Shown: positions 44,365-49,195, counted from the first letter of the stretch. The stretch is 64,000 bases of DNA from an uncultured Calothrix sp. (GCA_937973965.1 CALJJQ010000066.1:62001-126000); one strand, 5' to 3'. The notes: generated by a model from the letters alone, not told the origin. A program made the numbers and translations.

Positions 44365-46713
44365 TTATAGGATACAGTTACAATGTTTATAAAACTTATA
44401 GATTAATAGGGATATTATTAGTAATAATACAATCATAAAGGGGAAAAAGGTAATTACTATTATATTCCCAAGATAATTACGGTAATTAATTTTTTCCTGA
44501 CCAGCTTCAATATATCTGGTAATTAAATCTGATTCTGAGGATGTAAGAAGTTCCCCATACTGCTTCATAAATACTTTGTATTCTTCAAGTTGTTGAGAAT
44601 TAGGTAATCGGCTCGCTTTTTTAGTAATATCTTCTTTATCCCATTCCTGAGCGTAATTAATAATTTGATTTTTCCGGATATCTATATAGCGATTTTCTTG
44701 AGTCCATTCCCGTAACTTTTTCCAGTGCTGGGTTAATATTTCATGGGATAAGGTGACGACTTGTTTTTTCTCTCCGTTTTCTTGGGTATCTTCTTCTAGG
44801 ATAATTAAATCACTCTTTTGCAAATATTCAATAGTACTTTTAATTTGTTTCCAACTAATATTTTGCTGATTATCTAACTGATTTTTCCGTCTGCATATTT
44901 CCATAAAGTTTTCCAGTAAGACTTTTTTTCTGGTATAACCTGTTGTTCCGTCTCCTAGTGCGACTAAATTAATTAAGATAGTTTTGGCAATAGCACCCTG
45001 ACCCTGATTTTTTAATTCCTCATAGACTTTATTTCCATGTTGATTTAAAATGCCTTTAAGTCTTCCCAGCTTATTATAATTAATCAGCGTTAGTGTTTGA
45101 TGGTCTTGTTGCTCCCAAAGATTAGTTAACATATATTGTAATAAAGCTAAGTTCCCAGAGACAGGTTTCATGTCATTGATTAACCTGTCTATCAGTTTTT
45201 TTTCTACCCTCACACCTACTTTTTCTGCTGGTTTAACAATTACTTCTCGTAATATATCTGGGTTCATCGGTGTAATCGCGACAAGGTTTTGCTGGATATT
45301 TGCTGCTAGTCCAAAGTATGGTCTCTCAGTGCATTTACCAATAAAATCTGCACGGATAGCTAAAACCAAGGAAAATTTAGAACTCCATGCTTCTAATTTT
45401 TCTAATAAACAACGGATAAACAGATATTGTTCCGAGTTATCCCCTAAACGTTCACCCGGTGCTTGATTTTTACGCAGAGAGAAAACTTCTTCAAATTGAT
45501 CGATAACTAAAATAACCCGTTCTTTACTACATCTTTTGATTACTTGGTCAATCATTGCTTCTAAAGCATCGGTAATTTTCTCTCCGTTATTTTCTTTCTT
45601 CGCGTCTAATAATTTAATAAACTCTCTAAACTGTGATTTTTGTTCCTCAGTAGATAAGCTGGTATCAACAAATGCCTGGGCTAAACTATTGAGGGGTTTT
45701 TCTCCTGGTTGAATCACTGGAGGAATGTACCAGTTATCACTTCCAGATATGTGTAAACCCTCTTTCAATCGATAAACTAAACCAGCACGAATAACACTAG
45801 ATTTTCCAACTCCAACTGTACCAATAACTGCGAGAAAGTTATTTTTACTAATTTTTTCTAGTAATTGATTTATTGTGCGATCGCGTCCATAAAAGTTACT
45901 AGCATCTTCTGGATTACTATCAAAATAAGCTAGTCCTTTGTATGGACATTGGTGAGAATCTAAAGTGTTTTTAGATTCTTCTGGTTGATTATTTTCTGAA
46001 ATTGCTAAATTATTTATTGTTCCAAGATACACGCGTTTGAAGTCACCTAGTTTTTGCAAAGAGGCTTCATAGCTTTTGATATATTTTACTAATTCTGTAT
46101 TATCATTACCATATTTATTTTGATTCTCTAAGGCAATGATGACGGATTTGGTTAAACTACTACATCTATCCCTATTTTGTTGAAATTCTTGTTTTGATTT
46201 TTGAAAAGAAAAGAGAAAAAAGCGACTTTTATTTAAACAGTTATCCAAAATAAAATTATCTAAATTTAATTTATTATTAACGCCTTGATGATGACAACAG
46301 TCAATAATCACTATTTGTTGCTCTATTCTGCTACGTTTTAAAACCTCTATCAACCAGTGTAAGGATATTCCTAAATCATCCTGTGCTGGATTAGAATCAC
46401 TTGTTGTTAAAAAAACTTCTGTTACACCTGAATTTTTGACTAAAATATATCCAGAGAAGTAGAATAAAGCCATCTTCGGAGGATTACCGCTTGGAAGAAA
46501 AAGTTTAATAATTTCGTCCTTGAGCTGTTTCCGATCCGGTTTACTAAAATCTGATACCTGAAAGCCACATCTTTGCTTCAAAATATTCTTCATGTCTTTT
46601 GCATTGCGGTTAGGTGCTTTCAACGCTGGAAATATTTTGCCCTTTTCATATTTATTTATACCTACAACTAAAGCTTGACGAGATGATACTTGAGAAGGGA
46701 TATTTGGAGTCAT
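44365..46713 (-). CDS. Caspase-like / STAND ATPase fusion with C-terminal membrane anchor
   Basis: A 782-residue protein. Residues 10-160 are a caspase-fold domain (RQALVVGINKYEKG...; catalytic Cys region 'IIDCCHHQG', C140). The usual His of 'FSGHG' is Tyr89 in 'FYFSGYILV', so protease activity is doubtful. Residues about 255-500 are an nSTAND1-type NTPase ('CPYKGLAYFDSNPEDASNFYGRD', Walker A GTVGVGKSS near 298-306, Walker B 'ILVIDQFEEVF' near 401-411). A helical region leads to one C-terminal membrane helix (about 752-775). Related cyanobacterial proteins usually end in WD40 or TPR sensors; here there is none. The pentapeptide gene is 100 bp upstream on the same strand. Confidence 0.85.
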   Translation of the reverse strand: MTPNIPSQVSSRQALVVGINKYEKGKIFPALKAPNRNAKDMKNILKQRCGFQVSDFSKPDRKQLKDEIIKLFLPSGNPPKMALFYFSGYILVKNSGVTEVFLTTSDSNPAQDDLGISLHWLIEVLKRSRIEQQIVIIDCCHHQGVNNKLNLDNFILDNCLNKSRFFLFSFQKSKQEFQQNRDRCSSLTKSVIIALENQNKYGNDNTELVKYIKSYEASLQKLGDFKRVYLGTINNLAISENNQPEESKNTLDSHQCPYKGLAYFDSNPEDASNFYGRDRTINQLLEKISKNNFLAVIGTVGVGKSSVIRAGLVYRLKEGLHISGSDNWYIPPVIQPGEKPLNSLAQAFVDTSLSTEEQKSQFREFIKLLDAKKENNGEKITDALEAMIDQVIKRCSKERVILVIDQFEEVFSLRKNQAPGERLGDNSEQYLFIRCLLEKLEAWSSKFSLVLAIRADFIGKCTERPYFGLAANIQQNLVAITPMNPDILREVIVKPAEKVGVRVEKKLIDRLINDMKPVSGNLALLQYMLTNLWEQQDHQTLTLINYNKLGRLKGILNQHGNKVYEELKNQGQGAIAKTILINLVALGDGTTGYTRKKVLLENFMEICRRKNQLDNQQNISWKQIKSTIEYLQKSDLIILEEDTQENGEKKQVVTLSHEILTQHWKKLREWTQENRYIDIRKNQIINYAQEWDKEDITKKASRLPNSQQLEEYKVFMKQYGELLTSSESDLITRYIEAGQEKINYRNYLGNIIVITFFPFMIVLLLIISLLIYKFYKHCNCIL

Positions 46714-46813
46714 TTTAATTAATTAAAACGGTAGATAACTTGAGATAATTTGAAGTCAATAGATATCGTGACTGGAAATTAGATAGCCAACTTTTATGGG
46801 AATTGAATAATAA

Positions 46814-48565
46814 TCAAAATAAACCTAGCAACTGAGCAAAAGATTTATCATACGTAGCTTTTTCCCAATTTTTATTTCTAGTAATTTGCCTAGGAACCAA
46901 ATTTATAGCTCCAATAAAGTTAGCTCCCTCTAGATCTGCATCTTGAATATCAGCTCCACTAAAATCTGCACCTTTAAGATTAACTTTCTGCAAATTAGTC
47001 TCGGCAAATTTAACTTCTGCTAACTTTGTATTTTCCAGATTAGCTCCAGATAAATCGGTATGGGTAAAATCACTATTACTGAGGTTTGCATCAATTAAAT
47101 TTACTTCCCTCAAATTTGCATGGGAAAAATCTTGATTGCGAAGGTCTTTATTTTGAGTTTTTGAATTAACAATTTGCCAAACTAAACGCCATTTTTCACT
47201 AATTTGTGTCTGAGCATCGATGATTGCACCTTTAAAATTTGCACTGCTAAAATCAACTTCTGTGAGGTTAGCATTAAAAAACTTTGCATCCCTGAGATTT
47301 GCTGATTTTAAGTTAGCATGACTAAGATTAGCTCCTTTCAAGTTAGCATTAGATAAATTAGCACCACTTAAATCAGCTTCAACTAGTTCTACATCGACTA
47401 AGCTACTATTTTCTAATTGTGCATCATTGAGTTTGGCTTGAGTAAATTTAATCCTATCTAAAATCAAATTGCTCAGTATGGCATTCCTTAAGTCAGCAGC
47501 AGATAAATTAGCACCGCTTAAATCGACATCTTGGAAACTAATATTATTAAAAGTTGCACCACTCAGGTTCGCACCACAAAGCTTTGTTTGATATAAATTT
47601 GTACCAAAAAAAATAGCTCCAGAAAAGTCTACACCGTTAAGGGTTAGGTGACTCAGATTTACACCAGTGAGATCAGTACCAATAAAATTTGTATTACTAG
47701 GATAGGTTTCTTGAAAGTTTACATAACTAAGTTCTGCATTTTCTAGATTTGTCTGGTTGAGAATTGCTTGACTGAGGTCAGCATACCTCAGGTCAGCATA
47801 ACTCAGGTCTGCTTTAGTCAGGTTTGTACCTATTAACTTAGTATTTGTTAAGTCTGCACCTACTAATTTAGCATCACTTAGATCTGCATAACTCAGGTCT
47901 GCATAACAGAGATTTGCTGGACTTAAATCGGCGTATTTAAGTTGTGCTTGATTTAGTTTTGCGTGATTTAAATCTGCATATTTGAAGATAGATTTACACA
48001 AATTAGTACCAGTAAAATTTGCTCTTGCTAAATCCCCATATGCTAATTTAATCCCTGATAAATCAGCTCCTGTTGCTGTTAAACCAGCTAAACTAACGCC
48101 GTCTTTATTTAAATCTTGAAGTGCTGTTACTCTTCCACCACTTCCTCCCTGACCTTCTGCAGAATTAATTAATTGCCAAGCTTCGTAATGGGTACGTTTT
48201 TGCTGTTCAGGAAAATTAACAAGAAAAATTATTAAACCAATTAAAATACTGAACTGTTCGAGCTTATAAAATATAGGATTATTAATATACGGAAGGAATT
48301 TATCACATCGTGAAGATTCCTCACTATCTTTTGAGGATTTACATTCTGACCATTTAGGAAACAATGTATCACTTAATGGTTTACTCATAAGTATTACACA
48401 AATAAAGATAAACGTCATTAATGGCACAATGTACTGTTTAACTTTATTTCTAATTTTTTTAATTCTCTTCTTAGAAGACAAGTCTTTTCTTTGATACTTT
48501 TTTTTGCTGCTTTTTTCCAATTTTATACCTCTTGGGAAATCATTAATTATTCTGTCTACCGTCAA
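46814..48565 (-). CDS. Membrane pentapeptide-repeat protein
   Basis: A 583-residue protein. A very basic N-terminus (1-45) is followed by a membrane helix (46-60), a Cys-containing loop, and a second helix (104-118). From about 150 onward come two long runs of A(D/N)LxX pentapeptides forming a right-handed beta-helix, split by a short non-repeat break (IIDAQTQISEKWRLVWQIVNSK) near 470. It is upstream of, and probably cotranscribed with, the caspase-like STAND gene (100-bp gap). The helix may act as the interaction surface of the pair; inference. Confidence 0.85.
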   Translation of the reverse strand: MTVDRIINDFPRGIKLEKSSKKKYQRKDLSSKKRIKKIRNKVKQYIVPLMTFIFICVILMSKPLSDTLFPKWSECKSSKDSEESSRCDKFLPYINNPIFYKLEQFSILIGLIIFLVNFPEQQKRTHYEAWQLINSAEGQGGSGGRVTALQDLNKDGVSLAGLTATGADLSGIKLAYGDLARANFTGTNLCKSIFKYADLNHAKLNQAQLKYADLSPANLCYADLSYADLSDAKLVGADLTNTKLIGTNLTKADLSYADLRYADLSQAILNQTNLENAELSYVNFQETYPSNTNFIGTDLTGVNLSHLTLNGVDFSGAIFFGTNLYQTKLCGANLSGATFNNISFQDVDLSGANLSAADLRNAILSNLILDRIKFTQAKLNDAQLENSSLVDVELVEADLSGANLSNANLKGANLSHANLKSANLRDAKFFNANLTEVDFSSANFKGAIIDAQTQISEKWRLVWQIVNSKTQNKDLRNQDFSHANLREVNLIDANLSNSDFTHTDLSGANLENTKLAEVKFAETNLQKVNLKGADFSGADIQDADLEGANFIGAINLVPRQITRNKNWEKATYDKSFAQLLGLF

Positions 48566-49195
48566 AACTATCCAACCAAATACTTATACCTGCATTTCTC
48601 ACAAATTCCCAAAACTTACAGGGAGTAAGGAGTAGAAAGAAAATCAATCCTTCACCCAAGACTTATAACCGACTCGTGAGAAATCCGGGTGATAGCAATT
48701 CCCAAAATCTTTGTGACACATATACCTGTTACCAAATATCTCTCATATCGACATGTCCATAATTGCATGTCTACAATACTGTCGATATTGTCAAATATAT
48801 TACAAAATGTATTCTGTATAAATACACAAAAAAAGGCGATCGCAATTCATCTCCACTTGAACCATCGATGACTGCTGCTGATTTCTCAATGGATGTACAT
48901 ATTTCATCTTCGTTTGTAGTATATTAGCAAATCACGAAACTAAAAAGTATGCTTTTACACAAACATGATTTAATTTTCATATATTTGACGTATGGTCAAA
49001 ATTCCATTGAGAGAATTTGCATATATCCGTTGCTTCCGCTTCTTCAAGACTAAAATGTAGTATGCGAATGGTAGGAATGGTAGGCGATCGCATGATGATT
49101 ATCACTCGATCAAAATCCTAACTGACTCCAATAAATCCCCGTCTTCTCCCAATTCTGGATATGAACTTTTTATCAAGCTATTGATTTTATTTTAA
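48566..49195. other. Intergenic region, gene remnants possible
   Basis: About 630 bp, AT-rich, holding a GGGAGTAAGGAGTAG tract (48618-48635). It lies where the N-terminus of the DUF5682-like gene should be, but I cannot read a remnant in it. It also serves as promoter region of the pentapeptide/caspase operon. Confidence 0.4.

What the first reader, a model, noticed from the sequence alone, without database searches (positions are those of the whole stretch)
44365..48565. Candidate two-gene system: pentapeptide-repeat membrane protein plus membrane-anchored caspase-like STAND ATPase
A 583-aa membrane pentapeptide-repeat protein and a 782-aa caspase-fold/STAND ATPase with its own C-terminal membrane helix are adjacent, leftward and 100 bp apart. 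STAND NTPases fused to caspase folds are known in bacterial conflict and programmed-cell-death systems; pairing with a two-helix pentapeptide protein, and replacement of the usual C-terminal WD40 or TPR sensor by a membrane anchor, are not described to my knowledge.
Basis: partly seen in the sequence, partly recalled or inferred. Interest (0 to 1): 0.7.

Follow-up and report, generated by a model that had tools for sequence, protein, structure and literature searches.

The report
Dead-caspase STAND switch with pentapeptide partner
Two neighbouring genes of a filamentous cyanobacterium encode a membrane-bound ATPase switch that carries a caspase-like domain with a lost active site, and a membrane protein with a long pentapeptide coil; the same pair recurs in ten related genomes, so it is a real two-gene system, probably a cell-death or defence-type alarm whose trigger is unknown.

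Summary
P1 (44365-46713, -) is caspase fold + nSTAND1 ATPase + one membrane helix; P2 (46814-48565, -) is two membrane helices, a conserved linker and a pentapeptide coil. The same P2->P1 order recurs in 11 of 218 genomes of the family, in three genus-level groups and different chromosomal contexts, gaps -4 to 188 bp, no other shared gene. On the ATPase domain alone the 11 form one clade (100/100).

Two corrections. First, P1 is a pseudo-caspase: the catalytic His is Tyr in all 11, Cys stays, ATPase motifs are intact and the domain is under purifying selection; probably an adaptor, not a protease. Second, the membrane helix did not replace the sensor: most relatives have that helix followed by WD40 or pentapeptides, and four sister pairs still carry WD40 behind it. 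Many intact-caspase relatives carry a helix-linker-pentapeptide tail on the same chain, a fusion link between P1 and P2.

Best guess: a membrane-tethered STAND switch with P2 as sensor or scaffold; the conflict or cell-death role is inference. New variant of a known kind; no published description found in the papers searched.

The parts
46814..48565 (-). P2: membrane pentapeptide-repeat protein, 583 aa (TTG start; probable true start TTG at 48520)
   Evidence: ORF; Pfam pentapeptide E 3e-91; orthologues next to P1 in 10 other genomes; AlphaFold pLDDT 80
48374..48430 (-). P2 membrane helix 1 (residues 46-64), basic residues before it (N terminus predicted cytoplasmic)
   Evidence: hydropathy and charge, helix in model
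48218..48274 (-). P2 membrane helix 2 (residues 98-116)
   Evidence: hydropathy, helix in model
48080..48211 (-). P2 linker (residues 119-162, KR-x2-YEAWQ-x-INSA...GR..AL..LN...LAG), the most conserved part of P2
   Evidence: invariant columns over 11 members; profile of helix 2 + linker matches the tails of one-chain caspase-STAND-pentapeptide relatives, E 3e-7, and the linker alone, E 3e-6
46907..48079 (-). P2 pentapeptide beta-helix (residues 163-553)
   Evidence: Pfam, model mostly above pLDDT 80, Foldseek best match HetL 3du1
46714..46813 (-). 100-bp gap between the genes, without terminator, conserved with Calothrix sp. NIES-3974
44365..46713 (-). P1: pseudo-caspase - nSTAND1 - membrane helix, 782 aa
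   Evidence: ORF; Pfam; model pLDDT 84
46087..46680 (-). P1 caspase-fold domain (residues 12-209), predicted inactive
   Evidence: Pfam C14 E 2e-12; Foldseek MALT1 paracaspase
46447..46449 (-). Tyr89 at the catalytic-His site (SGY instead of SGHG)
   Evidence: alignments: Tyr in 11 of 11 pair members, His in 76 relatives
46294..46296 (-). Cys140 at the catalytic-Cys site, retained
44629..45945 (-). P1 nSTAND1 ATPase (residues 257-695), Walker A GTVGVGKSS and Walker B LVIDQFEE intact
   Evidence: Pfam E 2e-97; G298, G303, K304, S306, D405, E408, E409 invariant in 43 sequences
44407..44463 (-). P1 C-terminal membrane helix (residues 751-769)
   Evidence: hydropathy 3.04; same place as the helix before WD40 or pentapeptides in relatives
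48773..48825 (.). upstream region with two inverted repeats (48773-48791, 48809-48825), conserved with NIES-3974; putative promoter/operator
   Evidence: pattern reading only

Best explanation
The two genes form an operon for a membrane-tethered signalling complex. Shown: P2 then P1 in 11 genomes; P1 = caspase fold without catalytic His, intact STAND ATPase motifs, membrane helix; P2 = two helices, invariant linker, pentapeptide coil. Inferred: both proteins sit in one membrane; P2's extra first helix puts its pentapeptide coil on the cytoplasmic side, next to P1. P2, by its coil or by the variable loop between its helices, senses a stimulus or holds P1 inactive. Release lets P1 bind ATP and oligomerise in the STAND manner. 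The dead caspase domain then works as a protein-binding adaptor: it recruits or restrains a separate effector, for instance the one intact caspase found in this genome (a caspase-nSTAND1 protein on contig C120) or an unknown target. The outcome is probably a stress, cell-death or defence response.
For: Conserved order and strand in 11 genomes of 3 genus-level groups, gaps -4 to 188 bp, one 4-bp overlap; flanking genes differ between groups and nothing else is shared. No intact-caspase relative has a P2-like gene upstream: of 85 loci with at least 1.4 kb of upstream sequence only three do, all SGY members. Fusion link: many SGHG relatives carry a helix-linker-pentapeptide tail on the same chain; a profile of P2's helix 2 and linker, without repeats, finds it at E 3e-7. 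The 11 are one clade on the ATPase domain (100/100) and on the caspase domain. His->Tyr in 11 of 11, Cys kept; ATPase motifs invariant; dN/dS of the caspase domain 0.14-0.28 in five couples. 100-bp gap without terminator. Dead caspase domains are described as regulators or peptide binders in related conflict systems (PMC7159879).
Against: No biochemical, expression or phage data. The split arrangement and the Tyr arose once, so their association has no independent repeats. 17 neighbourhoods of stand-alone P2-like proteins hold no such partner, so the module can work without P1. A similar helix-linker-pentapeptide module sits behind tandem globins in other proteins, which fits an output or scaffold role as well as a sensor role. 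The charge around P1's helix is ambiguous in the window itself.
Confidence: 0.5

Rival explanations
1. P2 is the effector and P1 the switch: activated P1 makes the two-helix pentapeptide protein perturb the membrane, so the lost protease is not missed.
For: The caspase domain is dead, so an effector is needed; P2 has two helices and a fast-changing helix-1/loop region; the module also follows tandem globins, where it would be the output; PMC8195603 proposes membrane-pore domains behind caspase modules.
Against: In single-chain relatives the pentapeptide tail stands at the usual sensor end and the caspase is intact; no pore-like features were tested.
Confidence: 0.2
2. P1 is a dominant-negative regulator (like c-FLIP) that restrains intact caspase-STAND paralogues in the same cell.
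For: Dead caspase domain close to the intact ones (163-181 bits to the best of the pentapeptide-fused group); G235 holds both a pair and an intact fused protein; inactive enzyme domains as decoys are described for related systems.
Against: In the window's genome the only intact caspase found (C120) is a distant relative (36.6 bits) and no intact pentapeptide-fused paralogue was found.
Confidence: 0.12
3. A degenerating remnant of a caspase-STAND-WD40 protein that happens to lie beside a common membrane pentapeptide protein.
For: WD40 lost in the short forms (a WD40 fragment still follows P1 in G237); higher dN/dS than most neighbours (0.30 and 0.39).
Against: Long open frames in 11 genomes, purifying selection on the domains of P1, invariant ATPase motifs, invariant linker, adjacency kept in different chromosomal contexts.
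Confidence: 0.08
4. A regulator of ordinary physiology (redox, photosynthesis or heterocyst biology) rather than a conflict system, as proposed for YS pseudo-orthocaspases.
For: The title of PMC6426788 proposes a role of cyanobacterial pseudo-orthocaspases in photosynthesis; P2's coil is most like HetL.
Against: P1 is not closely related to the YS-like type (17 bits); patchy distribution, 11 of 218 genomes; relatives on conjugative or mobilizable plasmids; mosaic divergence within the pair, more typical of conflict genes.
Confidence: 0.1

Closest known systems
Caspase-nSTAND1-helix-pentapeptide and caspase-nSTAND1-helix-WD40 single-chain proteins of cyanobacteria
   Same: Same domain order up to the membrane helix, about 30-40% identity; helix-linker-pentapeptide tail similar to P2's
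   Different: One chain, intact His-Cys dyad, no P2-like gene upstream
EACC1-caspase two-gene conflict system (Kaur et al. 2020, system 4; PMC7159879)
   Same: 5' gene for a small membrane protein, 3' gene for an N-terminal caspase domain fused to variable domains, STAND among them
   Different: P2 is not EACC1 (two helices, pentapeptide coil); P1's caspase scores 72 against a cut-off of 140 for the EACC1-associated type; the caspase is dead; cyanobacteria, not mainly actinobacteria
Pseudo-orthocaspases of cyanobacteria (YS, YN; PMC6426788, PMC8283722)
   Same: Catalytic His replaced by Tyr in a caspase fold
   Different: Cys retained (a YC dyad), fused to STAND and a membrane helix; YS and YN types lack other domains, and the YS-like copy of the same genome is not a close relative
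HetL-like pentapeptide-repeat proteins
   Same: Pentapeptide beta-helix
   Different: P2 adds two membrane helices and the YEAWQ-INSA linker; 216 bits against a cut-off of 260

Membership tests
Active caspase / orthocaspase (Peptidase C14) | Caspase fold | tested here: met
   Pfam E 2e-12; Foldseek MALT1 E about 1e-7
Active caspase / orthocaspase (Peptidase C14) | His-Cys catalytic dyad | tested here: not met
   Tyr89 / Cys140 in P1 and in all 11 members
Pseudo-orthocaspase, YS/YN type | Dyad lost | tested here: met
Pseudo-orthocaspase, YS/YN type | Tyr-Ser or Tyr-Asn dyad, no further domain | tested here: not met
   Tyr-Cys, STAND and membrane helix present; definition from PMC6426788; 17 bits to the YS-like copy in the same genome
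STAND NTPase, nSTAND1 family | nSTAND1 profile above the gathering score | tested here: met
   324.6 bits against 27.1
STAND NTPase, nSTAND1 family | Intact Walker A and B | tested here: met
STAND NTPase, nSTAND1 family | ATP-dependent oligomerisation | not testable with these tools
   needs biochemistry
EACC1-caspase two-gene system | 5' gene encodes EACC1 | tested here: not met
   No EACC1 match for P2 in Pfam; P2 has two helices and pentapeptides
EACC1-caspase two-gene system | 3' gene with caspase of the EACC1-associated type (NF047832) | tested here: not met
   71.7 bits against a cut-off of 140
Known anti-phage system in PADLOC-DB | Full-length match of its proteins | tested here: not met
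   Only a partial match to a caspase model (residues 14-144) for P1, a weak mad8 match, and nothing for P2
Hailong effector HalA | HalA profile above cut-off | tested here: not met
   31 bits against 250, over the pentapeptide part only

The most novel reading that the evidence does not exclude
A conserved two-component bacterial signalosome in which a catalytically dead caspase on a STAND ATPase serves as adaptor and a separate membrane pentapeptide protein, akin to what is a fused tail in sister proteins, is its sensor: a split receptor-switch pair, comparable to adaptor-type inflammasomes, in Calothrix-type cyanobacteria.
Probability: 0.3. Interest if true: 0.72.

Novelty: new variant of a known kind. 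Interest (0 to 1): 0.55.

Why it matters
Cyanobacterial caspase homologues are usually discussed as proteases of cell death. Here is a lineage in which a STAND-linked caspase lost its catalytic His yet is kept under selection with a dedicated membrane partner. That makes a question testable: whether the caspase fold works as a signalling adaptor in bacteria, as pseudo-caspases do in animals. It also offers a reading of the widespread membrane pentapeptide proteins of cyanobacteria, whose function is mostly unknown: at least one group is the separate partner of a STAND switch.

Tried and rejected
Search of solved structures by sequence with P1: nothing at E 0.01. Rfam on the region: nothing. 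Viral contigs for the SGY caspase: none. Promoter/terminator scan: no more hits than in shuffles. Domain-wise covariation of P1 and P2: a partial correlation of the caspase with the N-terminal part of P2 (0.64) shrank and lost its specificity with one genome per close couple, so it is not used. Mosaic synonymous divergence (abrupt change at the caspase/STAND border in G240/G237) suggests recombination; it is reported but not leaned on. Simple fission of a caspase-STAND-helix-pentapeptide gene was considered and not adopted: the pentapeptide gene lies upstream of P1, not downstream, so the fused and split forms are related by rearrangement or separate recruitment, and the placement of the pair clade among the fused forms is poorly supported (open fork).

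Full report
OBSERVATION. The two ORFs are present at the stated coordinates, strand and spacing. P1, 782 aa, matches Peptidase_C14 (12-209) and nSTAND1 (257-695, 324.6 bits); P2, 583 aa, matches pentapeptide repeats. Hydropathy gives one helix in P1 (751-769) and two in P2 (46-64, 98-116). AlphaFold models agree: P1 mean pLDDT 84, pTM 0.78, with Foldseek matches to MALT1 paracaspase and to Orc1/Cdc6-type AAA+ proteins; P2 mean pLDDT 80, helices followed by a continuous coil from about residue 163, best match HetL. P2 probably starts at the second TTG (48520): AAGAGG lies just upstream of it and several other members begin about there.

CONSERVATION OF THE PAIR. The nearest relative is Calothrix sp. 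NIES-3974 (87% identity for P1), with the pair at the same chromosomal place. A search of all 218 held genomes of the family and a look at the neighbourhoods gave nine more genomes with the same arrangement: a membrane pentapeptide gene with P2's linker (BLAST E about 1e-24 to 1e-34), then the STAND gene, same strand, gap -4 to 188 bp. In total 11 of 218 genomes: both of genus group g1, two of g30, seven of g45. The flanking genes differ between the groups (most g45 members lie between a permease-like and an oxidoreductase-like gene; g1, g30 and G238 lie elsewhere) and no third gene is shared. With the caspase domain of the 11 as a profile, 391 genomes of the order gave two members at 368-371 bits and then nothing above 179 bits: the type seems confined to this family, within that sample. 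Viral contigs gave none.

THE CASPASE IS DEAD. At the catalytic-His site P1 has Tyr89 (YFSGYILV for YFSGHGL); Cys140 is kept. 76 other aligned relatives have His and Cys. Tyr89 and Cys140 are invariant in the 11 members. The ATPase is intact: G298, G303, K304, S306, D405, E408 and E409 are invariant in 43 sequences. The caspase domain evolves under constraint: dN/dS 0.14-0.28 in five couples of genomes. Its nearest kin are the intact caspase-STAND proteins (up to 181 bits), not the YS-like pseudo-orthocaspase of the same genome (17 bits), so the His was lost within the STAND-linked group; the stem branch of the 11 is long (1.05). The literature names YC among rare dyads and lists 60 AAA_16-linked cyanobacterial orthocaspases, all of the true type, none pseudo (PMC8283722).

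THE MEMBRANE HELIX IS NOT A REPLACEMENT. Most full-length relatives have a helix just behind nSTAND1, followed by WD40 (about 1200-1800 aa) or by pentapeptides (about 900-1150 aa). Within the pair clade four members (L201, L202, L206, L209) are 1446-1521 aa and carry WD40-type repeats behind the helix (Pfam for L201 and L206; alignment for L202 and L209); the others end soon after it, and in G237 a 168-aa WD40 fragment follows the shortened gene. The window's form is thus most simply explained by loss of WD40.

FUSION LINK. More than a dozen SGHG relatives carry pentapeptides on the same chain behind the helix (Pfam for one). A profile of P2's helix 2 and linker, without repeats, finds this tail at E 3e-7 (linker alone 3e-6). 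A similar helix-linker-pentapeptide module occurs in 37 of 100 related genomes, without a caspase-STAND protein next to it in the 17 neighbourhoods read, and in some proteins behind tandem globin domains. It is therefore a mobile membrane module; P2 is its free-standing form allied with P1.

PHYLOGENY. On the nSTAND1 domain alone the 11 pair members are one clade (100/100; 100); pentapeptide tails come and go several times. Where the pair clade attaches is not resolved. The two traits, separate P2 and Tyr89, are seen in one clade only, so their coincidence is not independently repeated. Intact relatives have no P2-like gene upstream (0 of about 80 with at least 1.4 kb of upstream sequence).

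TOPOLOGY (inference). Charges put the STAND side of the helix inside and what follows outside in most relatives; P2's N terminus is basic, so its two helices bring the coil back inside. If so, the split form places the pentapeptide coil on the same side as the ATPase, whereas the fused form would place it outside. This needs an experiment; for the window's own P1 the charges are ambiguous.

MECHANISM. Shown: gene pair, domains, lost dyad, intact ATPase motifs, selection, fusion link. Inferred: complex formation, sensing by P2, STAND-type oligomerisation, adaptor use of the caspase fold, and a stress, death or defence outcome. [quoted passage not shown]

COMPARISON. The nearest described two-gene system is EACC1-caspase (PMC7159879): same logic (5' membrane gene, 3' caspase gene), but P2 is not EACC1 and P1 fails the EACC1-caspase cut-off. 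No report of this pair was found in the papers searched; subscription journals are mostly absent from that library.

Noticed in passing
window 48773-48791 and 48809-48825: Two inverted repeats (ACAATA-N7-TATTGT; GTATT...AATAC) upstream of P2 in a stretch conserved with NIES-3974; possible operator.
   Followed up: partly
L174 8865-10838, L175 9646-11565, L176 9884-11908: Proteins with globin domains (two stretches each) followed by two membrane helices, a P2-like linker and pentapeptides: a possible haem-sensor use of the same membrane module.
   Followed up: partly
L092 3204-6818; L096 212-1384: A second, separate group of STAND-linked caspases with a lost dyad (SGN / DCYH type) in Microcoleaceae and Okeania genomes.
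   Followed up: partly
L206/L207 and window/L032: Mosaic synonymous divergence: in G240/G237 P2 and the caspase domain are far more diverged than the STAND part, with an abrupt change at the domain border; suggests exchange of P2 plus caspase as a block.
   Followed up: partly
own genome G000:C5:82180-82914 and C120:3981-6854: The only other C14 proteins found: a YS-like pseudo-orthocaspase (SGYG, twin-arginine N terminus) and an intact caspase-nSTAND1 protein of about 1719 aa.
   Followed up: partly
plasmid records: Caspase-nSTAND1 relatives, some with pentapeptides, lie on conjugative or mobilizable cyanobacterial plasmids (Tolypothrix, Acaryochloris, Nostoc).
   Followed up: no
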